A stretch of DNA of 64,000 nt from Microbulbifer thermotolerans (GTDB lineage Bacteria; Pseudomonadota; Gammaproteobacteria; Pseudomonadales; Cellvibrionaceae). Positions 13,418-47,723 of this stretch are shown in pieces. The stretch lies in NCBI RefSeq assembly GCF_900112305.1, contig NZ_FOKT01000002.1, positions 433,228 through 497,227 on the forward strand. Reading direction: 5' to 3'. Below the pieces are notes generated by a model that did no database searches, had not been told where the DNA came from, and saw nothing but the letters and a program-made list of their open reading frames with translations. The position numbers and the translations under genes were made by a program. Position 1 is the stretch's first letter. Each line of letters starts with the position of its first letter.

Positions 13418-15211
13418 TTAAAAGGCGAAATGCTCAGCATCCAACGCCATCAGATTATCGGCCCCACTCAGAATTGCCGCGGCATGACTGCTGGTACGGG
13501 GGAGTATCCGGTCATAATAGAAACGCGCAGTAGCCAGCTTGGCACGGTAGAAATCCGCTTCACCTGCGCCCTCACCCAATTTCTCATTGGCCACCTTGGC
13601 GGCTCGGGCCCAGAGGTAAGCTTGCACGACATATCCTGAGAACATCAGGTAGTCAACGGAAGCCGCGCCCACTTCATCCGGATTTTCCATCGCCTTGGCA
13701 CCCACCTGAAGCGTCAGATCACCCCACTGCTTGTTCAGTTCCTGCAGCTTGGTAACAAACGGTGCCAGCGCTTCATTGTCTATCTCCGCCTGACAGAATT
13801 TGTGCACAATCTTGGTGAATTTACGCAGCAACTCTCCCTGACTCATCAGCACCTTACGGCCCAGAAGGTCCAGGGCCTGAACACCGGTGGTGCCCTCATA
13901 AATGGTGGAGATGCGCGCATCCCGCACATTTTGCTCCATACCCCACTCAGCGATATAACCGTGGCCGCCAAAACACTGCAGGCCGAGGTTGGCGGATTCA
14001 AAACCGGTCTCTGTCAGGAAAGCCTTGGCAATCGGTGTCAGGAAGGCGAGCAGGTCATCAGCTTCCTTCTTATCTTCCTCGCTGCCTTTGTGCAGACGAT
14101 CCACTTGTTGCGCACACAGTAGGGTCAGCATACGGCCACCCTCAGCAAAGGCTTTTTGGGTCAGCAGCATACGGCGCACATCGGGGTGTACGATGATCGG
14201 ATCGGCGGGGCCATCGGGGTTTTTCGGGCCGGACAGGGAGCGCATCTGCAGGCGCTCTTTCGCGTACGCGAGCGATTTTTGGAAGCCGGCCTCGGCATGC
14301 GCCAGCCCCTGCAGGGCGGTACCCAGGCGCGCAGTGTTCATGAAGGTGAACATGCAGTTAAGCCCCTTATTGGGCGGGCCGATTAGGAATCCCTTGGCAC
14401 CGTCGAAGTTCAGCACCGCAGTAGCGTTGCCGTGAATACCCATTTTGTGCTCGAGAGAGCCACAAACCACAGCGTTGCGCTCGCCGACAGAGCCATCTGC
14501 CTGGGGCAGGAATTTAGGTACGATAAACAGGGAAATCCCTTTAGTGCCAGCCGGTGCGTCAGGCAGGCGCGCGAGCACGATGTGCACAATGTTTTCGGCC
14601 ATATCGTGCTCACCGGCAGAGATAAAGATCTTGGTGCCAGTGATGGAATAGGAGCCATCGTCATTAGGCTCGGCCTTGGTGCGCAATATGCCCAGGTCGG
14701 TGCCGCAGTGAGGCTCGGTGAGGCACATTGTGCCAGTCCAGCTTCCCTCCACCAGCTTGGTCAGATAAATGCTCTTCTGCTCTTCGGTACCGTGCGCCTC
14801 AAGGGTATTCATGGCACCGTGAGACAGGCCGGGATACATACCCCAGGACCAGTTGGCAGTACCGACCATTTCGCTCATCACCGTGCCCAGCGACGGCGGG
14901 AGCCCCTGCCCCCCGTAAGCCGGATCATGCGCCAGGGAGGGCCAGCCGGCCTCGACAAACTGCTGGTAAGCCTCTTTGAAGCCCTCCGGGGTAGTGACTT
15001 CGCCGTCTTTCCAGGTGCAGCCCTGCTGGTCACCGACTTGGTTCAGCGGCGCCAGCACGTTCTCACAGAATTTGGCGCCCTCTTCCAGGATGGCGTCTAC
15101 CAGATCCGGAGTGGCCTCCTCATAGCCCAGGGACGCATAGTGATTGTCCCAGTCCAGCAACTCGCGCATGGCGAAACGCATATCGCGCAGTGGAATCTTG
15201 ATATCGGTCAT
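13418..15211 (-). CDS. Large acyl-CoA dehydrogenase (DmdC-like family)
   Basis: 597 residues, the long form of acyl-CoA dehydrogenase with an extra C-terminal domain. Motifs: N-terminal helix domain, YGGQGLPP, MCLTEPHCGTDLG (flavin-contact strand), GTKIFISAGEHDM and STIYEGTTGVQALDLLGRK, in which the Glu is the expected catalytic base. It introduces the alpha-beta double bond into acyl-CoA and passes electrons to ETF. Relatives include FadE-type enzymes and methylmercaptopropionyl-CoA dehydrogenase; the acyl chain cannot be predicted. The gene has its own promoter region and terminator. Confidence 0.88.
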   Translation of the reverse strand: MTDIKIPLRDMRFAMRELLDWDNHYASLGYEEATPDLVDAILEEGAKFCENVLAPLNQVGDQQGCTWKDGEVTTPEGFKEAYQQFVEAGWPSLAHDPAYGGQGLPPSLGTVMSEMVGTANWSWGMYPGLSHGAMNTLEAHGTEEQKSIYLTKLVEGSWTGTMCLTEPHCGTDLGILRTKAEPNDDGSYSITGTKIFISAGEHDMAENIVHIVLARLPDAPAGTKGISLFIVPKFLPQADGSVGERNAVVCGSLEHKMGIHGNATAVLNFDGAKGFLIGPPNKGLNCMFTFMNTARLGTALQGLAHAEAGFQKSLAYAKERLQMRSLSGPKNPDGPADPIIVHPDVRRMLLTQKAFAEGGRMLTLLCAQQVDRLHKGSEEDKKEADDLLAFLTPIAKAFLTETGFESANLGLQCFGGHGYIAEWGMEQNVRDARISTIYEGTTGVQALDLLGRKVLMSQGELLRKFTKIVHKFCQAEIDNEALAPFVTKLQELNKQWGDLTLQVGAKAMENPDEVGAASVDYLMFSGYVVQAYLWARAAKVANEKLGEGAGEADFYRAKLATARFYYDRILPRTSSHAAAILSGADNLMALDAEHFAF

Positions 15212-15368: not shown

Positions 15369-16421
15369 TCAGGCACCCTTGCGGCTGCGGTATTCGCCGG
15401 GAGTGATACCGGTCCACTTCTTAAAGGCCCGGAAAAAGGCACTGGACTCGTCGAAGCCCAGCATTTCGGCAATCTGGGCGTTGGACAGGTCCGGACAGCT
15501 CAGATAGTGAAAAGCGGCCTCCATGCGACACTCATCCTTGAGCTTCTGATAGGACGTGCCCTCCTGCTGCAGGCGCCGTCGCAGGGTGGTGACTGACATG
15601 TTCAACCGCTCGGCCACGGCCTCTGCGGCCGGCATGGATTCACTGACATCCCTGTTGAGAATCGTTTTCACCTTTGTTTTGATGCTGTTCGCACTGCCAT
15701 CGCTGATGACCAAGTGATAGGGGGCGGTGCGGATGAAATCCTCAACCGTTTGCGGATTTTGCACCACAGGGTAATCCAGGTAGCGGCTATCGTATTCCAG
15801 GGCGTTAACCGGCTGCTCAAACAAGAGTTCTTCAGCCTCGCTCTGGGCGAGCGTGCGGAACTCCTCGGGACAGGGAAAGGAAAAATGCAATTTTGACAGC
15901 GGTATTTCGCGCCCCACCAGCCAGCAGTAGAAGCGATGCCAAACCGCAAGCGTGGTGCGAATTACCCCCGGGTCCGTCTCGGCGATCAACTGCTCGAACT
16001 CACCAGCAGCCAGAGAGCTGATCCCTTGGATGACCACCCTTTCCCGGCCACCTGGCGCAGGTTCAATAGCGGGCTTTACCTTAAACCCGCGGCAAATCTC
16101 CATAAACTCTGCGGATAGAGTAATAGCTTGGCGCACGGTCGCACAGTTGACCACCGTTAAACACAGTAGGCGGAAAGACCCGGAGCGCACGCGGCCGCCG
16201 CTCAGCATGCCGAACCACTCGTCCTGCGCCAACCACATCACCCGCTGGTACAAGCGGCCGTATTTCAATGCGGAAAAGGCCGCAACTCCCGTCAGCTCCT
16301 CCTCCTCGATACCCACCGAGGAGAGCAACTCACGGCGGTCACAGCCGCGGCGCTGCGCTTCTTCCAGCAACCGCTCCAGGTAGGTTATGGGAATGCGGAT
16401 GTCCTCTTCAGACACTGCCAT
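15369..16421 (-). CDS. AraC-family transcriptional regulator (arabinose-binding-type N-terminus)
   Basis: 350 residues, with an N-terminal OruR/ArgR-like sensor domain and a C-terminal AraC domain (AAEAVAERLNMSVTTLRRRLQQEGTSYQKLKDE; NAQIAEMLGFDESSAFFRAFKKWTGITPGEYR). It faces away from the acyl-CoA dehydrogenase gene, on the same strand upstream of it. Regulation of that gene is plausible but not proven. The ATG lies directly after the stop of a small membrane protein gene (TAA-ATG), so both are in one transcript. Confidence 0.85.
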   Translation of the reverse strand: MAVSEEDIRIPITYLERLLEEAQRRGCDRRELLSSVGIEEEELTGVAAFSALKYGRLYQRVMWLAQDEWFGMLSGGRVRSGSFRLLCLTVVNCATVRQAITLSAEFMEICRGFKVKPAIEPAPGGRERVVIQGISSLAAGEFEQLIAETDPGVIRTTLAVWHRFYCWLVGREIPLSKLHFSFPCPEEFRTLAQSEAEELLFEQPVNALEYDSRYLDYPVVQNPQTVEDFIRTAPYHLVISDGSANSIKTKVKTILNRDVSESMPAAEAVAERLNMSVTTLRRRLQQEGTSYQKLKDECRMEAAFHYLSCPDLSNAQIAEMLGFDESSAFFRAFKKWTGITPGEYRSRKGA

Positions 16422-30330: not shown

Positions 30331-32313
30331 TTATGCAGTCACGGCGGGGCCGGCGGCTAGCTCCCGAACCGCTTTTGCCTTGCGGTAACGCTTGTCGGCA
30401 ACCGCCAGACCTCCTCCCACACTCATCAGCACCGCTCCGAGCCAAATCCAGACTACAAATGCTTTGTACTGCAGCCGCACAGCCCAGTCGCCATTGGGGT
30501 TGTTTTCCTCCAGCGGCTCGCCGAGGGCGACATAAATATCCCGGAACAGCCCCGAATCGATAGCCGCCTCGGTCATGGTACTGCCGCCGGAGAAGTAGTT
30601 GCGCTTCTGCGGGTACAGTTCCGCCACCGCCCGCCCGCGCCTGCTGACGGACACTATGCCCTCAAATGCACTGAAATTTGGCCCCTGTACCTTGCGCACA
30701 CCGTCGAACCGGAAATCGTAGCCGGCCACACTGTGGGTGTCGCCAGGCCCCATGCGCAAATCCTTTTCAACACTGTAGATAGTGGTCAAAGCCACGCCCA
30801 ACACGGATACCGCCAAGCCAATATGCGCCAAATGCATACCGTAAAAACTGATGCGCTGTCGCCTGAGACCGGCAGCCAGTGTTGCCGCATGACGGGTCTT
30901 GGCGAGAATATCGGCCAAACTGGCAGCGACAACCCATACGCCGACAAAAATGCCCAAAGCCGCGCCCCAGTGGAAACCGCCCGCCGCAAACGGCAGAGTC
31001 AATGCCGCGGTGACCGCGACCAGCAGCGGCAAACGCCAGGCACCGAGAAGCTTGTCCCAGCGGCTGTCCTTCCAATTGGCATGAACCCCCATCCCCAACA
31101 GCAGACATACCAGCGCCATCAGCGGCACGAAGAACATATTAAAAAACGGGGGCCCCACACTGATCTTGCCCCAGTTCAAGGCATCGGCCAGCAGGGGGTA
31201 AAGGGTACCGGTCAGCACTACCCCCATGATCAACACCAACAGGACGTTGTTGCCGAGCAGGAAAGTTTCACGGGCGCGGAATGAAAAAACGCTGACCGCG
31301 CTGACCGCGGGCGCACGCAAAGCAAACAACAGCAGAGATAAACCCACTACTACCGCCAGAAAGGCGAGAATAAAGCCTCCACGCAGGGGGTCGGTGGCAA
31401 AAGCATGCACGGAAGTGAGCACACCGGAGCGCACCAGAAAGGTTCCCAACAGGCTCAGGCTGAAGGTGAAAATTGCAAGCAAAATGGTCCAATTTTTAAA
31501 CAGGCCACGCTTTTCCGTGACCGCGAGAGAATGCATCAGCGCCGTACCCACCAACCAGGGCATAAATGAAGCATTCTCCACTGGATCCCAAAACCACCAG
31601 CCGCCCCAGCCCAGCTCGTAGTATGCCCACCAGCTACCGAGGGCAATACCCAGAGTGAGGAAACACCAGGCCACCGCAGTCCAGGGCCGCACCCACCGGG
31701 CCCAGGCCGCATCCAATTGACCACTGAGCAACGCGGCTATGGCAAATGCAAAAGCCACCGAGAAACCCACATACCCCATATACAACAGCGGCGGATGGAA
31801 AATCATCCCCGGGTCCTGGAGCAGCGGATTCAAGTCGTTCCCCTCCAGTGGCGGGAAAGGCAGGGTGCGCTCAAAAGGATTGGAGGTGATCAGGATAAAC
31901 AGAAAGAACCCCACCATCACCAGGCCCATCACCGACAGCACCTTTGCGACCAGTGCCAGCGGCAGCCTCCGGCTGAAAAGCGCCACCGCTGCAGTCCACC
32001 CCGCCAGGATCATCAGCCACAACAGAATCGATCCCTCATGCCCTCCCCATACCGCTGTGAACTTGTAATGTAATGGGAGAATACTGTTGGAGTTCTCGGC
32101 GACATAATTGACGGTGAAATCGCTCTGCACAAAAGCCAGGGTCAGGCATATGTATGCGATGAAGACAAAAGTCAGCACGCCGAGCGACAGCGGTCTGCCC
32201 GCAGCCATCCACAGCGCCCGCCCGGAATAGCTGCCGACCATCGGCACCGAGGCAAGCACAAGGGAAAGCAACAGCCCGGCGATCAAGGCAAAATGGCCCA
32301 ATTCTGGAATCAT
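30331..32313 (-). CDS. ccmF: Heme lyase subunit CcmF
   Basis: 660-residue polytopic membrane protein of usual length. Contains the tryptophan-rich heme-handling motif WGGWWFWDPVENASFMPWL, conserved periplasmic His residues (HFAL, HPPLLYMGYVG, HSLAVTEKRG) and a large C-terminal periplasmic loop. It attaches heme from holo-CcmE to apocytochrome c together with CcmH and CcmI. Overlaps ccmE by 4 nt. Confidence 0.95.
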   Translation of the reverse strand: MIPELGHFALIAGLLLSLVLASVPMVGSYSGRALWMAAGRPLSLGVLTFVFIAYICLTLAFVQSDFTVNYVAENSNSILPLHYKFTAVWGGHEGSILLWLMILAGWTAAVALFSRRLPLALVAKVLSVMGLVMVGFFLFILITSNPFERTLPFPPLEGNDLNPLLQDPGMIFHPPLLYMGYVGFSVAFAFAIAALLSGQLDAAWARWVRPWTAVAWCFLTLGIALGSWWAYYELGWGGWWFWDPVENASFMPWLVGTALMHSLAVTEKRGLFKNWTILLAIFTFSLSLLGTFLVRSGVLTSVHAFATDPLRGGFILAFLAVVVGLSLLLFALRAPAVSAVSVFSFRARETFLLGNNVLLVLIMGVVLTGTLYPLLADALNWGKISVGPPFFNMFFVPLMALVCLLLGMGVHANWKDSRWDKLLGAWRLPLLVAVTAALTLPFAAGGFHWGAALGIFVGVWVVAASLADILAKTRHAATLAAGLRRQRISFYGMHLAHIGLAVSVLGVALTTIYSVEKDLRMGPGDTHSVAGYDFRFDGVRKVQGPNFSAFEGIVSVSRRGRAVAELYPQKRNYFSGGSTMTEAAIDSGLFRDIYVALGEPLEENNPNGDWAVRLQYKAFVVWIWLGAVLMSVGGGLAVADKRYRKAKAVRELAAGPAVTA

Positions 32314-39052: not shown

Positions 39053-39206
39053 GACACTTAACCTTTTATCCTGAGAAAAGTATTAGGGTACCCCTGATTG
39101 CTTCACCTTGAATACAGAGAGCCCCCCGGGCGAGACAATCAGCCCCCAGACAGGCGCGTGCGGCAGGAAGATTTCTTGAGTTAGGCGCTGTCAAGCATAG
39201 ACTGGC

Positions 39207-39237
39207 ATAAAAAAACCCGGCAGAAAGCCGGGTTTTT
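39207..39237 (-). terminator. Original tRNA-Ser(GGA) terminator, displaced by the element
   Basis: AAAAACCCGGC pairs with GCCGGGTTTTT across a short loop. On the reverse strand it directly follows the tRNA 3'-end repeat at 39243, the position a tRNA terminator would occupy before integration. It could also stop transcripts coming from the right. Confidence 0.75.
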
Positions 39238-39242
39238 CAAAG

Positions 39243-39257
39243 TGGCGGTGAGGGAGG
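39243..39257. repeat. attL: 15-bp copy of the tRNA-Ser(GGA) 3' end
   Basis: TGGCGGTGAGGGAGG, identical to 47709-47723, the last 15 nt (with CCA) of tRNA-Ser(GGA) read on the reverse strand. This marks the left boundary of the integrated element. Confidence 0.9.
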
Positions 39258-39384
39258 CCGCCTAACCAAAATAACGCCAAATAATCACGAATAATAAAAA
39301 TCCTTAATTTTCAAAGGCTTACGAACACATCCCCCAATCCTGTTACCTGAAATTATCTCAAATGGTATTCTGTGAAGCGTAAAA

Positions 39385-39394
39385 GTGTGGGGCC
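39385..39394 (+). repeat. GTGTGGGGCC site 1 (near attL)
   Basis: GTGTGGGGCC, part of a longer similarity to 47631-47653 (GTGTGGGGCC, then ATT, then GTGGG). It lies just ahead of the integrase start. Candidate integrase arm site. Confidence 0.45.
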
Positions 39395-39411
39395 ATTTGT
39401 GGGATAAAATC

Positions 39412-40716
39412 ATGAACAAACTACGAGTCAGCCAAATAAAAGGGCTGGGACCGGGGCGACATTCGGATGGCGGCGGCCTGCTGCTAAGCGTTTCAAAAAC
39501 CGGGCGCAGATCATGGATTTTCAGATACCAGATTGCCGGCCGGCGTCGAGATTGCGGCCTCGGGAGTTTCCCGGCGGTTTCCCTTGCCGAGGCGCGAAGG
39601 ATGGCCGCAGAAATGAGGGCGCAAGCTCAAAGGGGCGTAGACCCAATTGAATGGCGAAAGTCCGAGCGCGAAGCCGCCGCCCGAGTTGGTGAGACGCCAA
39701 CCTTTGCCGAGCTGGCCGAGCGGTTTATCAGCGAGCAGGAACCCGGCTGGAGCGGCCCGAAGCAAGCGCCACAATGGCGCGCTTCGCTGAAGGCATATGT
39801 TTTTCCGTATATCGGGAGCAAGACGCCAGGCCAGATAAGCGGCGATGACGTGCTGGCACTGCTGCGCAAAATCTGGACCAAGAGACCGGAAACCGCCAGC
39901 CGGGTGCGCCAGCGGATCGAGCGCGTTTTAAATTATGCCGCTGCGCAAGGCCACCGCGACCGGAGCCAGCCGAACCCGGCAGCATGGCGCGGCAATTTGG
40001 ATAATGTTTTGCCGCCACACCGGAAAATCCAGCCAGTGCAGCACTTCCCCGCCCTGCCGCACCAGCAAGCCCCGGATTTTTGGGCATGGCTGAAGGACAA
40101 GCACAGCGCCAGCGCCCAAGCCCTGAAGCTGCTGATTTTGAGCGCCTGCCGCACCCGCGAGGTGCTGGGGGCGCGCTGGGACGAAATCGACATTGATGCA
40201 GCGGTCTGGACCGTGCCGCGGGAGCGTATGAAGGCCCGCAAGCCGCACACCGTGCCCCTGAGCACCCAGGCGCTGGAGGTGCTGGCCAGCATCCCCAGGA
40301 CAAAAAGCCCGTTTCTGTTCCCCGGCCGGGGGCGCAAGGTGCCGCACATGTCGAATATGAGCATGCTGGTTTTCCTGCGCAAAAACGGCCATGGCGACGT
40401 AACGCCGCACGGCATGAGGAGCACTTTCAGAGACTGGGCCTCAGATTGCACAAGCTTTGATCACGCCACTTGCGAGCAGTCTCTGGCACACACAATCAGC
40501 AACGCCGCCGAAGCCGCTTACAGGCGCGGGGAACAGCTGGCGAAGCGCCGCCAGCTGATGCAGGCCTGGAGCGACTTTTTGGAAGGCAAACCCTACGCCA
40601 CCGCCCCGGACCTGGACCAAGCACAGCCCGACACCGCCGACCTTGCGCGCCAGCTGGCGGAGCTGGACGAGGATCAGCGCCAGAGACTGCTGGAGATTTT
40701 GCAAACGTCGGATTAG
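39412..40716 (+). CDS. int: Tyrosine-recombinase integrase, P4 type
   Basis: 434 residues from ATG 39412; an in-frame GTG at 39385 lies in the repeated GTGTGGGGCC site and is less likely. N-terminal arm-binding domain (DUF4102-like: GRHSDGGGLLLSVSKTGRRSWIFRYQ, GLGSFPAVSLAEARRMAAEM), core-binding domain, then the catalytic domain with Arg247 (SACRTREVL), His333-x-x-Arg336 (HGMRSTFRDWA), His360 (LAH) and nucleophile Tyr370 (AAYRRG). All catalytic residues are present, so it should be active. P4-type integrases commonly use tRNA 3' ends, as here. It sits at the att end away from the intact tRNA. Confidence 0.93.
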   Translation: MNKLRVSQIKGLGPGRHSDGGGLLLSVSKTGRRSWIFRYQIAGRRRDCGLGSFPAVSLAEARRMAAEMRAQAQRGVDPIEWRKSEREAAARVGETPTFAELAERFISEQEPGWSGPKQAPQWRASLKAYVFPYIGSKTPGQISGDDVLALLRKIWTKRPETASRVRQRIERVLNYAAAQGHRDRSQPNPAAWRGNLDNVLPPHRKIQPVQHFPALPHQQAPDFWAWLKDKHSASAQALKLLILSACRTREVLGARWDEIDIDAAVWTVPRERMKARKPHTVPLSTQALEVLASIPRTKSPFLFPGRGRKVPHMSNMSMLVFLRKNGHGDVTPHGMRSTFRDWASDCTSFDHATCEQSLAHTISNAAEAAYRRGEQLAKRRQLMQAWSDFLEGKPYATAPDLDQAQPDTADLARQLAELDEDQRQRLLEILQTSD

Positions 40717-40736
40717 ACCAAATTTCCCCCTTTCGG

Positions 40737-40760
40737 AACCGGCCTTGGGCCGGTTTTTTA
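40737..40760 (+). terminator. Terminator after the integrase gene
   Basis: AACCGGCC pairs with GGCCGGTT across TTG and is followed by TTTTATT. It isolates int from the replication genes. Confidence 0.85.
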
Positions 40761-40843
40761 TTGCCTGAATAAATATTTTTCGAGATTAGCGTCAAAGGGC
40801 CGTTATTCCTCGTTAGCGGGGGTTAATTTGTGCGGGGAAAAAG

Positions 40844-40860
40844 GGAAATTTCGCCAGAGG
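40844..40860 (+). repeat. GGAAATTYCGCCAGAGG repeat, copy 1
   Basis: GGAAATTTCGCCAGAGG; matches copies at 45449 and 45583 with one mismatch. It lies 60 bp upstream of the alpA-like start. Confidence 0.55.
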
Positions 40861-40920
40861 GTTTAGGTCAGCCATGAAAATTTAATGGGGTCGTTCAATT
40901 TGATTCGGAGAACGACAACC

Positions 40921-41112
40921 ATGCACGACAAGATTCTGAGATTGCCTGCCGTACTTGAGGCCACCGGCCTTAAGCGAACCAGCCTTTACATGATGCGCCG
41001 CGATGGGGGGTTCCCTCAGCCGGTACAAATCGGCAAGCGTGCCGTTGGCTGGAGGCAGTCGGATATTCAAAAGTGGATCGATCAGCGCGCTACCATGCGC
41101 GTCGGGCAATAA
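40921..41112 (+). CDS. AlpA-family excisionase/regulator
   Basis: 63 residues from ATG 40921 with GGAG 10 bases upstream. Winged-helix layout typical of AlpA: ILRLPAVLEATGLKRTSLYMMRRDGGFPQPVQIGKRAVGWRQSDIQKWI. AlpA-like proteins of Gram-negative satellites and P4-like elements switch on excision or replication genes. The following primase starts 13 bp after its stop. Confidence 0.85.
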   Translation: MHDKILRLPAVLEATGLKRTSLYMMRRDGGFPQPVQIGKRAVGWRQSDIQKWIDQRATMRVGQ

Positions 41113-41125
41113 AAAGGGGGCCGCC

Positions 41126-43180
41126 GTGGAAAGCAAGACCCCCTCAAATCATCGAACAAATTATAACCATGCTTTGCCGGATGCGCAAACCCTGCACCAG
41201 GTTGTTGACGGGTTCCGTGCCGCGATGCAGGAAGCCGGCATAACGCCACCTGACCACATTGATACAGACGGCGAACTACACCGGTTTACCACCAACGGCA
41301 AGGCCGGCGACAAGGCCGGATATTATGCGCTGCACACCGATGGCACACCTGCTGGATTCTTTGGCTGCTGGCGATCCGGCACCTACCAAACATGGACCGC
41401 CAGCGGTGGCCGCAGACTGAGCGATCAGGACCGCCAGCGCCTGCAGGCTGCACGTGATGATGCCAAACGTGAGCGAGAACGGCGCTACAAGGCGCGTGCT
41501 GCCGTGGCTGGTGACATATGGAACGCTGCTGGCGCACCTGATCCTGCGCACCCCTACCTAAAGTCCAAATGCATTGACCCCGTTGGCGACATTCGCCAGG
41601 CGGACGCGATCCCCAAGGGTGTATGGATGGATGACGACACGCGCCGTGGAGCCCTGGCCAACTGTCTGCTGATCCCCGTTCGTGGCGTGGACGGTCGGAT
41701 TCAGTCGCTGCAGGCGATCACCCCGAACGGCGACAAGTGGTTTCTGGCCGGCGGTCGTATGGCTGGCGGTATGCTGCTGATCCCTGGCGACGAAGGCCGC
41801 GTCATCTGCTGCGAGGGATACGCCACCGGCGCGACATTGCAAACCGCTACCGGGGCCACCGTGGCCGTGGCTTTCAATGCTGGCAACCTGTGCAGAGTCG
41901 CAGAGGCCGTGCGCCGTATACATCCAGACGCCGATATGGTGATTGCAGGCGACAACGACCACAAAACCGAGGGCAACCCTGGTCAGACCGCTGCCGAGGA
42001 TGCGGCCGCTGCCGTTGGTGCGACTGTCGCCCTGCCTGAATTCGCCCCCGGTGAACAGGGAACCGACTGGAACGACTACGCAGCCAGCTACGGCATGGAT
42101 GCGCTGGTGGATGCCCTGCCGCTGAAGGACGACAAGCCGGACGCTGGCCGTCAATTCGGATTCACGGCCATTGGTGATCTGGTCGGAACACTGAAACCTA
42201 TTGACTGGCTGGTAAAGGGCTATTTCGAGTCTGACTCGCTGGCCGTTGTGTACGGCGAGCCTGGGCACGGCAAGTCCTTCTGCGCGATTGACGTGGCGTG
42301 CTGCGTAGCTACCGGTACCGACTGGCACGGTCACCAAGTGAAGTCTGGATCCGTGGCCTATATCGCCGGTGAGGGCCACAACGGCTTGGCGCGACGGTTC
42401 AAGGCCTGGGAGCTCGCCAACGGTGTGGACCTGGCCGGGGCTCCGCTGTTCGTGTCCACCATGGCCGCGCCGTTGAATGACGTTCTGGCCGCGTGCCACG
42501 TGGCCGATGCCGTCCGCACCCTGGTGGACCAGACCGGCAAACAGCCCGCCCTGATCATCGTTGACACCCTGGCGCGTAACTTCAACGCGGACGAGAACTC
42601 CGCCGCCGATATGGGGCAGTTTGTTGGGAACCTGGACAGGCATCTGCGCGTACCCTGGGGCGCCACGGTGATGGTCGTTCACCACAGCGGCAAGGACGCC
42701 ACCAAGGGCGCGAGGGGCTCCACGGCGCTGCGTGGTGCCGTGGATGCTGAATACCAGGTGGAGCGTGACGAAACCGGCATTGTTCGCATGCAGGCGCACA
42801 AGATGAAGGACGCAGAGCAACCTGACCCCCTGGCGTTCAAGCTGGAGGGCGTGAAACTGCCGCTGGCGGAGGAGGACGGTTCCCCAGTATTTGGCGCTGC
42901 GCTGCGAGGCATTGAATACGTGGCGCCGGCCAAGCGTGGCAGCGAGGGCAGAGGCAAGAACCAAACCAAGGCGCTGGCGGCACTGAATGATCTGCTGGAT
43001 GAACACCAACAACGGTTGATCGACGGCGGACAGAGTCCTGATGGTGCCAGGGTGCGAATTGACGACTGGCGCGATCGGTGCGGGTTCGACCGCAAGACAT
43101 GGCACAAGGTGAAAACGTCGCTCGAAAAAGGCGGAAAGGTGGCTTTCCTGCCCGGCGGGTACGTGGAGCCGGTATTTTGA
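41126..43180 (+). CDS. TOPRIM primase / RepA-like ATPase fusion
   Basis: 684 residues from GTG 41126 (GGGGG ribosome site). The N-terminal part has a DUF7146-like region (GELHRFTTNGKAGDKAGYYALH). A TOPRIM domain follows with Glu230 (CCEGYATGATL) and Asp276/Asp278 (GDNDH). The C-terminal half is a RecA-fold AAA_25/RepA-type helicase with Walker A GEPGHGKS (377-384), Walker B LIIVD (Asp480) and VHHSGKD. It should start replication of the excised element. A repeat array and hairpin follow directly, as expected for an origin it recognises. Confidence 0.88.
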   Translation: MESKTPSNHRTNYNHALPDAQTLHQVVDGFRAAMQEAGITPPDHIDTDGELHRFTTNGKAGDKAGYYALHTDGTPAGFFGCWRSGTYQTWTASGGRRLSDQDRQRLQAARDDAKRERERRYKARAAVAGDIWNAAGAPDPAHPYLKSKCIDPVGDIRQADAIPKGVWMDDDTRRGALANCLLIPVRGVDGRIQSLQAITPNGDKWFLAGGRMAGGMLLIPGDEGRVICCEGYATGATLQTATGATVAVAFNAGNLCRVAEAVRRIHPDADMVIAGDNDHKTEGNPGQTAAEDAAAAVGATVALPEFAPGEQGTDWNDYAASYGMDALVDALPLKDDKPDAGRQFGFTAIGDLVGTLKPIDWLVKGYFESDSLAVVYGEPGHGKSFCAIDVACCVATGTDWHGHQVKSGSVAYIAGEGHNGLARRFKAWELANGVDLAGAPLFVSTMAAPLNDVLAACHVADAVRTLVDQTGKQPALIIVDTLARNFNADENSAADMGQFVGNLDRHLRVPWGATVMVVHHSGKDATKGARGSTALRGAVDAEYQVERDETGIVRMQAHKMKDAEQPDPLAFKLEGVKLPLAEEDGSPVFGAALRGIEYVAPAKRGSEGRGKNQTKALAALNDLLDEHQQRLIDGGQSPDGARVRIDDWRDRCGFDRKTWHKVKTSLEKGGKVAFLPGGYVEPVF

Positions 43181-43181
43181 G

Positions 43182-43278
43182 CGTCCCAAACATGTCCCCA
43201 AACATGTCCCCAAACGTGTCACCAAACATCCCCAAAGCGTCCCCAAACCGCCAGCCCGAAGCGTCCCCAAACGTCCCC
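43182..43278 (+). repeat. Iteron-like array of GTCCCCAAAC repeats
   Basis: About eight imperfect copies of a 10-13 bp unit (consensus GTCCCCAAACATG) starting just after the primase stop codon. Spacing varies and the last copies degenerate. Iterons next to a replication gene usually form the initiator binding site. Confidence 0.7.
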
Positions 43279-43299
43279 CTCCCTATAAGGAGGGGGACG
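43272..43299. other. Perfect 11-bp hairpin, candidate replication origin
   Basis: CGTCCCCCTCC and its exact complement GGAGGGGGACG flank an A/T-rich 6-base loop (CTATAA). Right of it are (GGGGAC)-type repeats, the complement of the iteron core. With the upstream iterons this looks like a satellite origin. No T-run, so not an ordinary terminator. Confidence 0.55.
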
Positions 43300-43362
43300 G
43301 GGACGGGTGACGGGGACGGTGACGGCTGCAGAAACAGATATACAACGGAGACTTTCCAAACC

Positions 43363-43776
43363 ATGAACACCAAGACACTTGAGCAAGTACTGACTGAAAA
43401 CCCCGGCCTGACTCCCAATGGCTGGCGCTACTGGTGCATGAATCTTTCCGACTTCAAAGCATGGCGTGAGGAAACCGCGTCCGAAGAGTTCAAGGCGCAG
43501 TTTGAGGCCGCCAAGGCGCTGCTGGAGACGGCGACTCCGATCAAAACGCCTAGCGCCCACAGTTACAGTCTGAAGCACCTTCTGGAGATCCATGCGGGGC
43601 GGTATATCTCCAATGGAGCAACCATAGCCGCGGCACTGGCGTTGGGGCTCACAATCAGGCGGGACGCTTTCCACGAAAGCCCGAACTGTCTTATTGGTGT
43701 ATCAAAGCGCAACGTGAAGCACTGGCGGGACACTCAGCACGAGGCCAGGCAACGCAGAATGGAGGGATGCAAGTAA
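43363..43776 (+). CDS. Hypothetical mobile-element protein
   Basis: 137 residues, cytoplasmic. The N-terminal half is helical with charged stretches. The C-terminal half holds YSLKHLLEIHAGRYISNGATIAAALALGLTIRR, a pattern (KH..E...Y.sNG..IaAAl..G) I associate with unknown proteins of integrated elements and plasmids. First gene after the iteron array; overlaps the next gene by one base. Confidence 0.6.
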   Translation: MNTKTLEQVLTENPGLTPNGWRYWCMNLSDFKAWREETASEEFKAQFEAAKALLETATPIKTPSAHSYSLKHLLEIHAGRYISNGATIAAALALGLTIRRDAFHESPNCLIGVSKRNVKHWRDTQHEARQRRMEGCK

Positions 43777-44042
43777 TGAGGATGCCAAGTACTTATGCGC
43801 TCCACACGAGCCCTGACGTGGAGGCGAGCAGAAGGATTATGTCCTTTCTGGGTGATTTTTATTCCTTTAAAGACGAGCACCCGGACGTGGCGTATGACTT
43901 AATTCACAGTGTTGATTTTGATCGCGAATCCCTCACCTTCATTATCAGGCTGGATGGCGGAAGGGCAGAATTGAGCGGGCTCGCCAGGGAGTGTGCGCTG
44001 TGTAACCTCAGGCGGTTCGTTGTGGTCACTGTTCCCGGCTGA
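43776..44042 (+). CDS. Hypothetical small protein of the element
   Basis: 88 residues from ATG 43776, one base into the preceding TAA stop (TAATG). Acidic, with no known motif; DFDRESLTFIIRLDGGRAELSG reads as a beta hairpin region. Followed by a terminator, so it ends the replication-side operon. Confidence 0.55.
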   Translation: MRMPSTYALHTSPDVEASRRIMSFLGDFYSFKDEHPDVAYDLIHSVDFDRESLTFIIRLDGGRAELSGLARECALCNLRRFVVVTVPG

Positions 44043-44057
44043 GCGCCAAGCCAATAG

Positions 44058-44083
44058 AGCCCGGCCACGGCGCCGGGTTTCTT
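44058..44083 (+). terminator. Terminator between replication and packaging modules
   Basis: CCCGGC pairs with GCCGGG across a 6-base loop and is followed by TTTCTTGTT. It lies 15 bp after the small unknown gene. Confidence 0.6.
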
Positions 44084-44217
44084 GTTGCAGGCCACCTGCA
44101 GGGCTACCAGAACGGCCACAGGCGGGGCGCTGTTGGTCGGTGGTGTGGTGGTCGTGGTGCTTGCTGATCGACGGGCAGCGGGGCGCTGTGTGGCGCACAA
44201 AAGGTACTTTCTAGGGG

Positions 44218-44238
44218 GTGCCACCATGCGGGTGGCAC
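44218..44238. other. Perfect 8-bp inverted repeat before the small terminase gene
   Basis: GTGCCACC and GGTGGCAC flank five bases. A possible ATG with GGGGG before it lies inside. In lambdoid phages the cos/packaging site sits just ahead of the small terminase gene, so this region is a candidate packaging signal; it could also be an operator. Confidence 0.35.
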
Positions 44239-44399
44239 GGTGCGCGGTTTTTCACTTGTGCGAGGGCCCAAAATTCCGACACAACAAGAAGATGCGAACT
44301 TATCTCATTTGCGCAATGCCGCATGGAAAAGCCGCCAGAGGATTGCCGAGAAGAAAACATCTAGTTTTATCGGGTCCCAACGGAAAAGAGATTGCACCC

Positions 44400-44903
44400 G
44401 TGAAAATGAACAGAACCGAAATGGCCGACTGTCTGAGCGTTGCGCCGACCACCTTGGACGCCTGGACCCGTGAGGGCTGCCCGGTTGAGCACCGCCCCGG
44501 CCAGGGCAAGGCCGCTGAGTTTGACAGCGGCGATGTCATTCGCTGGCTGACCAACCGCGAGAAGGCCAAGGCCGCAGCCCGCGCCGATGCCGGAGACCTG
44601 GACGAATTGCGCGGCGAGAAGATCCGCGTTGAAACGCGGCTCAAGGAGCTGCAACTGGCCCGCGAGGCTGGCCAGCTGGCCCCGCTGGAGCACATCGAGC
44701 GCGCCTTGACAAATTGGGTGATCGAGCTGCGCACCCGCCTCCTGGCGCTGCCGCAGAGGGTTGCTCCGCGAATTCTGGGCGAGACAGACGAGAGCCTCTT
44801 GAAGGCAGCGATGAGTGACGAAATTCGCCAGGCGCTTAGCGGACTGGTTCTCGCTGATCTGTTCGAGAATGACGAAGAGTTTGGAGGTCTTGCCGATGGC
44901 TGA
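44400..44903 (+). CDS. terS: Nu1-like terminase small subunit
   Basis: 167 residues from GTG 44400. Starts at ATG 44406, 44292 or 44226 are possible; the chosen one puts the Nu1-like HTH at the extreme N-terminus as in lambda Nu1. N-terminal HTH (MNRTEMADCLSVAPTTLDAWTREGCPV), DSGDVIRWLTNREK, then a long helix (IRVETRLKELQLAREAGQLAPLEHIERAL) and LRTRLLALPQRVAP. It would bind the packaging site. No large terminase is nearby, which fits satellites that borrow a helper phage's enzyme. It overlaps the next ORF by 8 nt. Confidence 0.78.
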   Translation: MKMNRTEMADCLSVAPTTLDAWTREGCPVEHRPGQGKAAEFDSGDVIRWLTNREKAKAAARADAGDLDELRGEKIRVETRLKELQLAREAGQLAPLEHIERALTNWVIELRTRLLALPQRVAPRILGETDESLLKAAMSDEIRQALSGLVLADLFENDEEFGGLADG

Positions 44904-45123
44904 TTTTTCAAACCCCCGCGGCATCGTGGCCGCAATTCGCGAAGCCCAGAAGCGCCTGCGCCCGGATTGGGTCGAGCCCGAGCAGCGCGCCCGCGAAGCC
45001 CTGGCCGAGGCCGCCGAGGCTGCCCGCGAGGCCTTGGAGCCGCCGTACAGCTGGCGAGCCGAGAAAAAAATCCTGAGCCTGTCCGCCAGGCTGTTTCCGG
45101 CCGAGGAGGGCGTCGAACCATGA
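44896..45123 (+). CDS. Small acidic/alanine-rich protein of the element
   Basis: 75 residues with an excellent GGAGG site 8 bases before the ATG. Helical: VAAIREAQKRLRPDWVEPEQRAREALAEAAEAAREAL, probably a coiled coil, then a basic C-terminal part. Overlaps terS and the next ORF (ATGA). Position next to terS suggests a packaging or interference role, but no family is recognised. Confidence 0.6.
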   Translation: MADFSNPRGIVAAIREAQKRLRPDWVEPEQRAREALAEAAEAAREALEPPYSWRAEKKILSLSARLFPAEEGVEP

Positions 45124-45245
45124 TTGCAGACCGCCAAAAAAACCGCCGCCGCAAATGGCGCGCGCCGAGCCGCCGAGAGAACCCAGCGGCCCGGATCACC
45201 CGCCGCCGGCTGAAGAAAGGTTGGAAGCGCCTGGAATGGGCATAA
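45120..45245 (+). CDS. Tiny highly basic protein (41 aa)
   Basis: 41 residues, ATGA overlap with the preceding gene. About 14 Arg and 5 Lys (RQKNRRRKWRAPSRRE, ITRRRLKKGWKRLEW). Likely binds nucleic acid if made. No family recognised. Confidence 0.5.
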   Translation: MIADRQKNRRRKWRAPSRRENPAARITRRRLKKGWKRLEWA

Positions 45246-45314
45246 ACAAAAAAACAAAAACGCCCGGACCGCTGCAACGGTGCCGGGCTGTCACCGCGAA
45301 CCGGAGATTCCGCG

Positions 45315-45488
45315 ATGAAATTAATTATCACACGCATGGTTGCGATTTACATAGCCGCGGCTTCCCTTGGCTGGAAAATCGGATCGACCGCGCCTGGCTG
45401 GCTGGCCGAAAGCGAAGAGATGTTGATCGCATCGGCCCGGGAAAACTCGGAAATTCCGCCAGAGGAACCCGGCGGCGAACCGAGATAA
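45315..45488 (+). CDS. Small membrane-anchored protein (57 aa)
   Basis: 57 residues with GGAG nine bases before the ATG. N-terminal hydrophobic segment (MVAIYIAAASLGWKIGSTAPGWL) and an acidic Pro/Glu-rich tail (SEIPPEEPGGEP). Possibly exported or membrane-bound. Its 3' end carries repeat copy 2. A terminator follows about 50 bp later. Confidence 0.5.
   Translation: MKLIITRMVAIYIAAASLGWKIGSTAPGWLAESEEMLIASARENSEIPPEEPGGEPR
45449..45466 (+). repeat. GGAAATTYCGCCAGAGG repeat, copy 2
   Basis: GGAAATTCCGCCAGAGGA, inside the small membrane protein gene. A 19-bp identity with copy 3 begins one base earlier (45448-45466 and 45582-45600). Confidence 0.6.
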
Positions 45489-45540
45489 ATTTCAATCATT
45501 CCTTTCATTTAACATCTCTTTGCCTCCTCCTTCGGGTTTT

Positions 45541-45565
45541 CCGCGCAATTTGCGCGGTTTTTTTT
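45541..45565 (+). terminator. Terminator before the capsid gene
   Basis: CCGCGCA pairs with TGCGCGG across ATT and is followed by eight T. It separates the terS operon from the capsid operon, so the capsid genes need a promoter between here and 45785 or readthrough. Confidence 0.85.
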
Positions 45566-45582
45566 GCCTGCGATTCCAGCGC

Positions 45583-45600
45583 GGAAATTCCGCCAGAGGA
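45583..45600 (+). repeat. GGAAATTYCGCCAGAGG repeat, copy 3
   Basis: GGAAATTCCGCCAGAGGA between the terminator and the capsid gene, about 200 bp upstream of its start. Confidence 0.6.
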
Positions 45601-45654
45601 CGCTGTAACGCGCATTCGGAACAATGCTGAAAAGTTCGGAAAGCAGAGCCAGCC

Positions 45655-45798
45655 ATGGACGACAAAAACACTCAAGAGCCCCAATTAATTTTCGCCACCG
45701 GCAGCGTCCACACAAGTGTGGGGCCGATTTTTATCAGCCTGCCCGTCGCGGAAAAAATCGAAAACCCTTCAAAGGAAGACGCCCGTGAAAAAAACTGA
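45655..45798 (+). CDS. Possible tiny leader ORF before the capsid gene (47 aa)
   Basis: 47 residues (starts MDDKNTQEPQLIFATGSVH), overlapping the first 14 nt of the capsid gene in another frame. Ribosome site weak. It covers the second GTGTGGGGCC site, so it may just be regulatory DNA that happens to be open. Confidence 0.35.
   Translation: MDDKNTQEPQLIFATGSVHTSVGPIFISLPVAEKIENPSKEDAREKN
45716..45725 (+). repeat. GTGTGGGGCC site 2 (before the capsid gene)
   Basis: GTGTGGGGCCGATTT, same orientation as sites 1 and 3. It lies 70 bp ahead of the capsid start, so it could bind a regulator rather than the integrase. Confidence 0.4.
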
Positions 45799-46747
45799 AA
45801 TCGAACGCCGCCTGACCCGCGGCCAGCAATCCGCAGCCGTGGAGCTGGCGCAGCTGATTGAACGCGCCAAAACCGCACAGCCGCGCAACATCCGCCAGAC
45901 CGGCCCCGCGTCGTTCAAGATCGACCACCGCCGCAGCGGCCTGGCCGGCCAGACTGGCTGGCTGGATATGCGCAGCCTGCTGCCGGAGCTGCTGGACGCC
46001 GAAGGCGTCCTGACCAAGACCCCGGCCGCGACCCCTGCCGGTGAAACCAGAACCTTGGAGGCCAGCATTCTGGCCAATTCTCGCGCCTGCCAGGCCGGTG
46101 CGCACTTGCTTGTGGTTGAACCCGCCATGGAGCCCATCGAGGGGGCCGGGGCATTCCGGATGCAGAGGGCTGGCTTCCGTGTCATTTCGCCCGCCACCGT
46201 GGACGCCTTGACCCTGGACGCCAACGGCGAGGGCACAGCAACCGCCCAGGCATTGCCGATCGCTGAAGCCGAGATTGACCCGGACGCCTGGACCCAGCGC
46301 GCCTGCCGGTTCGAGATCAGCCGAGCCGAGATGCGCGACAATCCGCAGGTGGTGGATGAGCTGTTGATCGCCATTGGCGCTGGCCTGAGCCATGCCGCAG
46401 ACCAGGAGCTGCTGACCGCGATTAGTGCCGCCGCGCCGGACGCCTTCAGCCTGGCCGCTGCTGCCGCTGCTGGCTGCCGTTTTTCCGACCTGCGAGCCCT
46501 GACCGATGGCACTGGGGCCACCGTTGCCGATGATGGACAGCTGCGCCTGGCTGGCGTGCCTGCCGAGCTGAGCCAGGATCTGCCCGGCTCACTGATTGGC
46601 GACTTTGGAACCGCTGCCCTGGCGATCAAGCCGGAAATCACGGTTTTGGCCGAGCGCACCGACGCCCAGGGTGGTCTGGCGCTGACTGTCTGGGCTGGCA
46701 TGCAGGCGCTGCTGCCGACCGCCAGCAAATTCTGGAGCGTGTCATGA
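45785..46747 (+). CDS. HK97-fold major capsid-like protein
   Basis: 320 residues from GTG 45785 with AGGAAG 7 bases upstream. The charged N-terminal helix could act as scaffold (VKKTEIERRLTRGQQSAAVE). The spine-helix region (WTQRACRFEISRAEMRDNPQ, then helix VVDELLIAIGAGLSHAADQELL) and the C-terminal P/A domain (LIGDFGTAALAIKPEITVLA, then GLALTVWAGMQALLP) follow HK97 capsid order. No protease gene accompanies it, so either capsids form without cleavage or the helper provides it. It could also bind and reshape a helper capsid. Confidence 0.65.
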   Translation: MKKTEIERRLTRGQQSAAVELAQLIERAKTAQPRNIRQTGPASFKIDHRRSGLAGQTGWLDMRSLLPELLDAEGVLTKTPAATPAGETRTLEASILANSRACQAGAHLLVVEPAMEPIEGAGAFRMQRAGFRVISPATVDALTLDANGEGTATAQALPIAEAEIDPDAWTQRACRFEISRAEMRDNPQVVDELLIAIGAGLSHAADQELLTAISAAAPDAFSLAAAAAAGCRFSDLRALTDGTGATVADDGQLRLAGVPAELSQDLPGSLIGDFGTAALAIKPEITVLAERTDAQGGLALTVWAGMQALLPTASKFWSVS

Positions 46748-47082
46748 CCTGGTGGCCGTTCAATAAGCAGGAGCCGGAGCACGGCATCCCTGCCGATCTG
46801 AGCACGGCGATTGAAGCTGCCAGCGTGGTTTTCCGCGACTTTGGCGGCGAGGATGGTGAGGGGCGTTTGCTGGTTCGCGTGGCTGGAACTGGCGCCTGGT
46901 ACTGGTCCGGCACCAACGAGGCCGCCGAACGGTTCCAGCGTATGCACGACCTGCCGCCGGCAACCGCACGTAAGGCCGCCCGTTTGCTGGCGTCCGTGGT
47001 GGCCAGTCGGAACCGGGCCGAATACCGCCAGCCGCGCCAGCGCCGGAGCAGTTGGGTTTTCAGCGGATGGGAGACATTGTGA
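46744..47082 (+). CDS. Hypothetical protein downstream of the capsid gene
   Basis: 112 residues, ATGA overlap with the capsid gene and TGATG overlap with the next. Trp-rich at both ends (MTWWPFNKQ; WVFSGWETL), with GTGAWYWSGTNEAAERFQRMHDLPPATARKAARLL. No family recognised. Tight coupling to the capsid gene suggests a virion or assembly partner. Confidence 0.6.
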   Translation: MTWWPFNKQEPEHGIPADLSTAIEAASVVFRDFGGEDGEGRLLVRVAGTGAWYWSGTNEAAERFQRMHDLPPATARKAARLLASVVASRNRAEYRQPRQRRSSWVFSGWETL

Positions 47083-47246
47083 TGACCGACAAGACGAAAA
47101 TATCAATCGTTGCTGACAGTAAGCTGGTGGAACAGATCCGCCAGCGCCAGCGCAAGCTGAGCGAGCAGCTGGGGGCTAAGATCAGCATGAATCAGGTTGC
47201 CACTGGTCTGCTGACCCGCGCCCTGGAGCGCGAAGGGGGGCGTTGA
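47082..47246 (+). CDS. Ribbon-helix-helix-like small protein
   Basis: 54 residues from ATG 47082 with GGGAG 9 bases before. Short strand (KISIVAD) then two helices (LVEQIRQRQRKLSEQLG; MNQVATGLLTRALERE), the Arc/CopG-type plan. Likely a DNA-binding repressor or an accessory to the next gene, which it overlaps by one base. Confidence 0.55.
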   Translation: MTDKTKISIVADSKLVEQIRQRQRKLSEQLGAKISMNQVATGLLTRALEREGGR

Positions 47247-47617
47247 TGGATTGCCCCTTGCCCGAATCCGTGCAGGAAATTGCAGACGTGATAGGCCGGG
47301 ACCGTGCCCTGTATCTGATCGGCCAGCTCCCGCAGATCGGCGCCAGGAAACGGCGCCGGTGTATTTCCGTGCCGAAGCCAGCACGCCTGACGGCTGACCA
47401 CCAGCTGGTGCAGATCCTGGGCTGGGACGACGCGCGCAGGATGAGCGAGGTCTTCGGCGGGGAGATCCTGCAGCCAGCTGTCTGCCGGGGTCTGCTTGTT
47501 CGCTGGCGCCACATCGCGGTGCGGCGGCTGGCCCGACAGGGTTACAAAAACTCCGAATTGGCAGAAATTTTCGACATGAGCATTCGCGGGGTGAGGCTGA
47601 TCACCCACGGATGCTGA
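47246..47617 (+). CDS. Mor-like transcription activator
   Basis: 123 residues from ATG 47246 after GGGGGG. Matches the Mu Mor/C plan: IADVIGRDRALYLIGQLPQI, a loop, CISVPKPARLTADHQLVQILGWDDARRMSEVFGGEILQPAVCRGL, then the HTH RHIAVRRLARQGYKNSELAEIFDMSIRGVRLI. Mor activates middle promoters of Mu-like phages. Here it ends the capsid operon, next to attR, so it may activate the element's own promoters or the helper's. Confidence 0.75.
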   Translation: MDCPLPESVQEIADVIGRDRALYLIGQLPQIGARKRRRCISVPKPARLTADHQLVQILGWDDARRMSEVFGGEILQPAVCRGLLVRWRHIAVRRLARQGYKNSELAEIFDMSIRGVRLITHGC

Positions 47618-47630
47618 TCTTCACCCCCAC

Positions 47631-47653
47631 GGTGTGGGGCCGATTGTGGGGCA
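47631..47653 (+). repeat. GTGTGGGGCC site 3 (near attR)
   Basis: GTGTGGGGCCGATTGTGGGG. It parallels site 1 at the other end (GTGTGGGGCCATTTGTGGG) in the same orientation. Both lie within about 145 bp of an att core, as arm sites do. Confidence 0.5.
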
Positions 47654-47696
47654 GAAAAAAAGAAACCCGTTGATTTTCTTTTAGAATCAACGGGTT
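47653..47696 (-). terminator. Element-supplied terminator for tRNA-Ser(GGA)
   Basis: AACCCGTTGATT and its exact complement (12 bp) at 47664-47675 and 47685-47696. On the reverse strand, a T-rich run follows. It lies 12 bp after the tRNA CCA and inside the element, replacing the host terminator now at 39207. Confidence 0.8.
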
Positions 47697-47708
47697 ACAT
47701 ATATTAGA

Positions 47709-47723
47709 TGGCGGTGAGGGAGG
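47709..47723. repeat. attR: 15-bp core inside tRNA-Ser(GGA)
   Basis: TGGCGGTGAGGGAGG, identical to attL at 39243-39257. Confidence 0.9.

What the first reader, a model, noticed from the sequence alone, without database searches (positions are those of the whole stretch)
39243..47723. Compact phage-satellite-like element with a small terminase and a lone capsid protein
Seen: 15-bp att repeats at tRNA-Ser(GGA), an intact P4-type integrase, AlpA-like regulator, TOPRIM-ATPase, Nu1-like TerS and an HK97-fold capsid-like protein in 8.5 kb. No terL, portal, protease, tail or lysis gene is seen. Known: Gram-negative PICIs share int-alpA-primase and may carry terS; capsid-forming PICIs carry a larger head-gene set. 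Inference: this is a satellite that redirects packaging with its own TerS and supplies only a capsid (or capsid-altering) protein, with the helper providing the rest.
Basis: partly seen in the sequence, partly recalled or inferred. Interest (0 to 1): 0.92.

Follow-up and report, generated by a model that had tools for sequence, protein, structure and literature searches.

The report
Small phage satellite with lone capsid
An 8.5-kb element inserted at a tRNA gene, likely a parasite of bacterial viruses, carries a protein that is predicted to fold like a virus capsid and matched none of the phage genomes searched; it would likely build small virus heads around the element's own DNA while a helper virus supplies the rest.

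Summary

It does not look like a deletion remnant. Insertions of similar size (8.1-9.6 kb) at other sites, including E. coli fis, share int, AlpA-like regulator, capsid, a ~110-aa partner and a small RHH-like gene. TerS, late activator and (in E. coli) a tape measure resemble ep3/Persinger-type myophages, the likely helpers; the capsid does not resemble theirs.

A lone capsid gene in a Gram-negative PICI is not new (21 of 29 reference PICIs). New here: an unannotated, apparently satellite-specific capsid lineage, its conserved module and a predicted helper clade. I favour the protein building small heads itself; Ccm-like co-assembly is the main rival, and a dispensable capsid is possible. No packaging step was tested. 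New variant of a known kind.

The parts
39243..39257 (+). left att copy, 15 bp
   Evidence: exact repeat, none in shuffles; empty site in G022 and G033
39412..40716 (+). P4-type tyrosine integrase, 434 aa
   Evidence: PF13356, PF22022, PF00589 above cut-off
40844..40860 (+). repeat GGAAATTYCGCCAGAGG, copy 1, upstream of alpA
   Evidence: 0.05 expected in the window; the 3 exact copies in the 3.9-Mb genome all lie in this element
40885..41112 (+). AlpA-family regulator
   Evidence: PF05930 65.8 bits
41126..43180 (+). TOPRIM-ATPase replication protein (start inferred, GTG 41126; longer ORF from 41003)
   Evidence: Toprim_3 and AAA_25 above cut-off
43185..43248 (+). short tandem repeats directly after the replication gene, candidate origin (inferred)
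   Evidence: family D1 (4 copies)
43363..43776 (+). 137-aa protein, unknown
   Evidence: phrog_9576, unknown function, E 3.4e-4
43767..44042 (+). 91-aa protein, unknown
   Evidence: no significant family
44400..44903 (+). full-length Nu1-type terminase small subunit, 167 aa
   Evidence: phrog_57 110 bits, last 107 residues alone 61 bits; 39% identical to the phage ep3 protein
44896..45123 (+). 75-aa protein, unknown
   Evidence: no hit
45449..45465 (+). repeat copy 2
45583..45599 (+). repeat copy 3, upstream of the capsid gene
45785..46747 (+). HK97-fold capsid-like protein, 320 aa
   Evidence: no Pfam/PHROG hit; predicted fold HK97
46744..47082 (+). 112-aa capsid-partner candidate (p112)
   Evidence: homologue follows the capsid gene in L008, L009, L010 and L019 (blastp) and in L020 (by eye)
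47082..47246 (+). 54-aa small protein, RHH-like by position
   Evidence: position conserved; weak sequence match (L010 E 0.016; E. coli E 0.97); no PHROG hit
47246..47617 (+). Mor/C-type late transcriptional activator, 123 aa
   Evidence: phrog_836 84 bits; 46% and 49% identical to the late activators of ep3 and Persinger
47709..47723 (+). right att copy = 3' end of tRNA-Ser(GGA)

Best explanation
The 8,466-bp element inserted at the tRNA-Ser(GGA) gene is likely a phage satellite whose protein at 45785-46747, predicted to have the HK97 capsid fold, would form the shell of small heads, while a helper, likely related to the ep3/Persinger myophages, would supply the large terminase, portal and tail. 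Shown: exact insertion, gene content, recurring gene order, and resemblance of TerS and the late activator to those phages; predicted: the fold. Inferred: (1) AlpA and integrase excise the element on helper induction or infection; (2) the TOPRIM-ATPase replicates it from the repeats after its gene; (3) the Mor/C-type activator switches on late transcription, its own and/or the helper's; (4) TerS hands satellite DNA to the helper's large terminase; (5) the capsid protein, probably with p112 as assembly partner, makes a head sized for about 8-9.5 kb (or two units) on the helper's portal. Step 5 is the least certain.
Against: No packaging, induction or particle data. MCP genes in Gram-negative PICIs are reported as not required for helper-assisted transfer (PMC10111431, passage), and EcCICFT073 gave only phage-sized packaged DNA (PMC6092414, passage). 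Known shell-forming cf-PICIs bring more head genes (recalled; the paper is not held); here the helper portal would have to accept a foreign shell. SaPIbov5 Ccm shares a shell with a capsid protein only 24% identical (PMC8569155, passage), so lack of similarity does not exclude mixed shells. TerS is matched in only 2 of 5 related loci. No GpA-type large terminase was found in the host genome nor in G843 and G990 (without positive control), so no resident helper of this type was seen; other types were not searched. TerS and activator similarity could reflect common descent rather than present helper use. Encapsulins tie with phage capsids in the fold comparison.
Confidence: 0.45

Rival explanations
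1. Ccm-like redirection: the protein co-assembles as a minority subunit with the helper's major capsid protein and forces smaller mixed shells.
Against: Ccm is a 24%-identical homologue of its helper capsid; here no similarity to the ep3/Persinger head proteins is detectable. The candidate helper head protein has 682/685 aa, which I read as a protease-capsid fusion (inferred), unlike a plain partner subunit. The capsid lineage recurs in Rhodobacter, Paraburkholderia and Enterobacteria.
Confidence: 0.27
2. The capsid gene is not needed for packaging: the element travels as concatemers in normal helper heads, and the capsid-like protein serves another role (interference, regulation) or is tolerated.
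For: EcCICFT073 carries a capsid and a decoration gene, its packaged DNA was phage-sized, and deleting either gene did not relieve interference (PMC6092414, passages); PICI capsid genes are reported as not required for transfer (PMC10111431, passage).
Against: The gene is under purifying selection (median dN/dS 0.22), is followed by a p112 homologue in the 5 related loci compared, and the elements measured span only 8.1-9.6 kb, which a head-volume limit would explain. The EcCICFT073 capsid is a gpE-type protein (360 bits to phrog_29), unrelated in profile to this family (hhalign probability 0.2).
Confidence: 0.22
3. The element is a deletion remnant of a longer prophage.
For: Only two head genes (TerS, capsid) are present in 8.5 kb.
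Against: Clean att sites and empty site; similar-sized elements with related order at other integration sites; no match of three family members to 50,697 phages; no capsid-profile hit above threshold in three prophage regions of the genus.
Confidence: 0.03
4. The protein is an encapsulin-like cargo shell and not part of a virus head.
Against: In the loci viewed it lies beside int/AlpA/primase, TerS or tape-measure genes; no encapsulin Pfam hit.
Confidence: 0.03

Closest known systems
Gram-negative PICI EcCICFT073 (E. coli)
   Same: int, AlpA-like regulator, primase, then a late zone with a lone capsid gene followed by a 111-aa gene; no portal or large terminase annotated.
   Different: About 11 kb from int to last gene versus 8.5 kb; its capsid is lambda gpE family (360 bits), unrelated in profile to this one (probability 0.2); its likely RppA matches phrog_57 only over residues 7-47, while the window has full-length TerS and a Mor/C activator.
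fis-integrated PICIs of Enterobacteria (PMC10111431)
   Same: The E. coli relatives sit between yhdJ and fis with the published att TACGGCATGAACTAA.
   Different: The passages seen mention capsid genes in PICIs but not this capsid family nor tape-measure genes; supplements were not readable.
SaPIbov5 Ccm
   Same: Satellite-encoded lone HK97-fold capsid protein that changes head size and shape.
   Different: Ccm is a 24%-identical homologue of its helper capsid with a cleaved delta domain; no sequence relation to the candidate helper was found here.
cf-PICI (EcCI2)
   Different: cf-PICIs carry a larger head set including portal and protease (recalled); here only TerS and the shell protein were found.
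PmCI172 (Pasteurella multocida PICI)
   Same: Encodes an MCP homologue and gives small heads of about 38 nm (PMC6092414, passage).
   Different: Its sequence was not compared here.

Membership tests
Gram-negative PICI | integrase with its own specific att site | tested here: met
Gram-negative PICI | AlpA-family regulator after int | tested here: met
   PF05930 65.8 bits
Gram-negative PICI | primase/replication gene with origin downstream | tested here: inconclusive
   TOPRIM-ATPase present and repeats directly after it; origin function untested
Gram-negative PICI | genome of 10-20 kb (PMC10111431 passage) | tested here: not met
   8,466 bp; relatives measured 8,113-9,573 bp. Hence 'PICI-like satellite', not 'a PICI'
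Gram-negative PICI | induced and packaged by a helper phage | not testable with these tools
   needs induction and particle DNA
cf-PICI | own portal, protease and head-completion genes besides capsid and terminase (recalled) | tested here: not met
   no such family among scanned proteins; two ORFs of 57 and 41 aa not scanned
Ccm-type capsid redirector | homologue of the helper's own capsid protein | tested here: inconclusive
   helper not known; no similarity to ep3/Persinger head proteins
Rpp packaging redirector | TerS-like DNA-binding domain without the TerS C-terminal part | tested here: not met
   last 107 residues alone match phrog_57 at 61 bits; likely RppA matches phrog_57 only at residues 7-47
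HK97-fold capsid protein | HK97 fold | tested here: met
   predicted model only
deletion-remnant prophage | relatives that are longer prophages with the same genes | tested here: not met

The most novel reading that the evidence does not exclude
A satellite-only lineage of HK97-fold capsids, found in alpha-, beta- and gammaproteobacteria, travels with a ~110-aa partner gene and builds very small tailed-virus heads (one 8-9.5-kb genome) on a stolen portal: satellites that own the shell but nothing else of the head except, in some, a TerS. In Enterobacteria the same module also rides on ~9-kb circular plasmids that bring their own tail tape measure.
Probability: 0.33. Interest if true: 0.82.

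Novelty: new variant of a known kind. Interest (0 to 1): 0.62.

Why it matters
Capsid genes are the commonest late gene in Gram-negative PICIs (PMC10111431, passage), yet their role is unclear. This family offers a clean case: a capsid lineage not traced to any phage searched, kept under purifying selection beside one partner gene, in elements of narrow size, with a likely helper clade named from other genes. Relatives in 65 of 5,426 complete E. coli genomes make the question 'does a lone satellite capsid make the head?' directly testable in laboratory strains, and give a likely role to proteins now listed as hypothetical.

Tried and rejected
Searches that found nothing: the window capsid in viral contigs and genome contigs; family sub-alignments A3 and A4 in viral contigs and A3 in genome contigs; single proteins P0105 and P0098 in viral contigs; capsid sequence or profile against PDB sequences (one search gave two unrelated hits at E 0.73 and 1.6); PADLOC scan of eight small proteins; Rfam in the element (four matches at E 0.03-0.41, all at the element's edges or in the tRNA and below gathering scores, read as chance or tRNA).

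Rejected: Rpp identity of TerS; gpE-type capsid; capsid captured from the ep3/Persinger helper type; resident GpA-type helper in the host; deletion remnant. The first AlphaFold model (6 sequences, pLDDT 50.8) was too poor and was not used for fold search.

Kept open: the T-number. Scaling from a 42-kb T=7 head (assumed, not measured) gives about 12 kb at T=3 and 18 kb at T=4, so one unit in T=3 or two units in T=4 both fit. Also open: what the 137-, 91-, 75- and 57-aa proteins do. The att of L020 is a 14-bp repeat chosen because it is the end of a tRNA-Lys gene; it occurs in both neighbouring tRNA-Lys genes (16045 and 16159), and two longer repeats of 15-16 bp elsewhere in L020 were set aside as chance.

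These are longest-contig values of protein clusters, not independent genomes.

Literature: read by search listing and passages only (PMC6092414, PMC6739421, PMC10111431, PMC11773190, PMC11364771, PMC8569155). That this capsid family is undescribed rests on searches in an open-access library only; supplements were not readable.
Full report
WHAT IS THERE. The element is bounded by exact 15-bp repeats at 39243 and 47709. The right copy is the 3' end of tRNA-Ser(GGA). In relative G022 the left flank (window 39206-39242, 92% over 38 columns) ends one base short of the tRNA; in G033 the aligned left flank ends 247 bp before it. So the empty site is seen in two relatives; 11 relative loci were examined, no element DNA aligned in any, and in the other nine the left flank did not align. 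The insertion is 8,466 bp. The main genes run in one direction: integrase, AlpA, TOPRIM-ATPase, short tandem repeats directly after it, two small genes, TerS, two or three small ORFs, the capsid-like gene, a 112-aa gene, a 54-aa gene and a Mor/C-type late activator.

TERS. The 167-aa protein matches phrog_57 over residues 1-150 with 110 bits, and its last 107 residues alone still give 61 bits. The PDB sequence search gives six hits: TerS DNA-binding domains first, RppC last. The 144-aa EcCICFT073 protein that I take for RppA (by length and position, not by locus tag) matches phrog_57 only at residues 7-47 and phrog_141 weakly (E 0.017) at 8-88. So this is a whole TerS and not an Rpp.

RELATED ELEMENTS. 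Two genomes of the same order carry elements with similar order at other tRNA genes. L019 (tRNA-Ser(TGA), 16-bp repeat, 8,576 bp) has int, AlpA, TerS, capsid, 128-aa p112, RHH-like and late activator. L020 (tRNA-Lys, 14-bp repeat, 8,113 bp to the nearer of two tRNA-Lys genes) has int, AlpA, capsid, p112 (seen by eye), RHH-like and late activator, but no TerS match. In Enterobacteria the plasmid collection holds 5 records with the gene: four circular of 8.9-9.3 kb and one of 17.4 kb with two places. None has an annotated integrase, but the gene table of that collection is incomplete. In the E. coli collection 65 of 5,426 genomes have it, 64 on the chromosome and 1 on a plasmid. The 4 chromosomal cases viewed all lie between yhdJ and fis with int, a HTH regulator, VapE primase, capsid, 104 aa, 54 aa and a tape measure protein, and measure 9,346-9,573 bp between att copies; L010 measures 9,380 bp. 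Among five related loci compared (L008, L009, L010, L019, L020; L009 is cut), p112 was matched in 4 by blastp, the RHH-like gene in 5, TerS in 2 (L010, L019) and the late activator in 2 (L019, L020). The window's own 54-aa gene is only weakly similar. Whole-genome surveys, which overlap, show the family is rare: own genome only among 195 relatives and among 369 of the class, 2 of 398 in the phylum sample, 2 of 151 in the family of G843.

SELECTION. Eleven Enterobacteria-type capsid genes, equal in length and all open, gave 55 pairs with median dN/dS 0.22, range 0.08-0.32. The pairs are not independent and include close relatives, but the gene is clearly kept as a protein.

HELPER. The window TerS and, independently, the tape measure protein of plasmid L003 find many of the same phages: of the 11 distinct phages in the 15 rows shown for TerS, 10 (Arya, HeidiAbel_Bas97, MQ-4, KA2-1, ECO1230-10, PT1, ep3, ECOO78, Alux-21, ET-SD-TH) are also in the 20 rows shown for the tape measure (32 and 484 records matched in all). 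Direct comparison with ep3 and Persinger gives TerS 39/38%, late activator 46/49% and the TOPRIM part of the primase 36/35% for the window; tape measure 43/48% and primase 61/58% for L003; tape measure 64/41% and primase 66/61% for the E. coli fis element L011. In these phages the late activator lies just upstream of the lysis and terminase genes. The capsid is the exception: against their 682/685-aa head proteins hhalign gives probability 3.0 and 2.4; the profile finds nothing above threshold in both phages or in three prophage regions of the host genus (best stray E 0.048, a short ORF of ep3 on the other strand); and tblastn of three family members finds nothing in 50,697 phages. One of the three prophages, in G037, has TerL, portal and head protein 31%, 37% and 44% identical to ep3, so related phages do occur in the genus. 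Matches to the Persinger large terminase occur in 12 of 48 genus genomes but not in the host itself (PF05876 also absent there).

MECHANISM. I take the element to be a PICI-like satellite. AlpA/integrase excision and replication by its own protein follow the PICI pattern (PMC10111431, PMC6092414, passages). The satellite's own late activator would couple its capsid operon, and possibly helper late genes, to the helper cycle. TerS would direct the helper's large terminase to satellite DNA. The capsid protein would set the head size. Whether it forms the shell alone or mixed with helper capsid is not settled: the absence of detectable relation to the likely helper capsid and the recurring module favour an independent shell; the SaPIbov5 Ccm precedent, with only 24% identity, warns that mixed shells tolerate strong divergence (PMC8569155, passages). 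The narrow element size (8.1-9.6 kb) is what a fixed small head would give, but it is only circumstantial. All these steps are inference; none was tested.

AGAINST. PICI capsid genes are reported as not required for transfer and EcCICFT073 gave only phage-sized packaged DNA. No GpA-type large terminase was found in the hosts of the window, L019 or L020 elements.

NOVELTY. Lone capsid genes in Gram-negative satellites are known (21 of 29 reference PICIs), so the kind is known. The capsid family, its p112 partner, the small size class with this module, the plasmid form and the predicted helper clade were not found in the papers searched, an open-access library only, of which six papers were seen in passages. 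I rate it a new variant of a known kind.

Noticed in passing
L003:3364-5655; L011:14140-16413; L013:14352-16640: The E. coli relatives encode their own tail tape measure protein (L003: phrog_28, 356 bits), 41-64% identical to the ep3 and Persinger proteins (L003 and L011): a satellite gene that could alter helper tail length or injection.
   Followed up: partly
L003, L004, L005, L006, L007 (plasmid records): The capsid module sits on circular ~9-kb plasmids, in L003 with a PriCT-2/TOPRIM/VapE primase of 762 aa, with no annotated integrase; L007 (17,382 bp) looks like a head-to-tail dimer. L008 has identical ends (circular, unit 9,151 bp).
   Followed up: partly
window 40844, 45449, 45583 (and 44325 with 2 mismatches): Repeat GGAAATTYCGCCAGAGG upstream of alpA and of the capsid gene; all 3 exact copies in the genome lie in the element. 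Could be an operator or a terminase site.
   Followed up: partly
window 39385, 45716, 47632: GTGTGGGGCC near both ends and just before the capsid gene (a fourth copy lies outside the element at 31151, minus strand); the end copies may be integrase arm sites, the middle one is unexplained.
   Followed up: no
L033:15716-16240: The ep3 terminase small subunit is annotated only at 15923-16240; the open frame from 15716 gives the 174-aa protein that matches TerS.
   Followed up: no
L020, gene after the integrase (14027-14635): An internal exact duplication of about 190 bp, spacing 180 bp.
   Followed up: no
tables: Longest contigs holding family members cluster at 8.0-8.5 kb (5 of 24) and 8.85-9.65 kb (33 of 91), suggesting free circular or packaged unit-length molecules.
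   Followed up: partly
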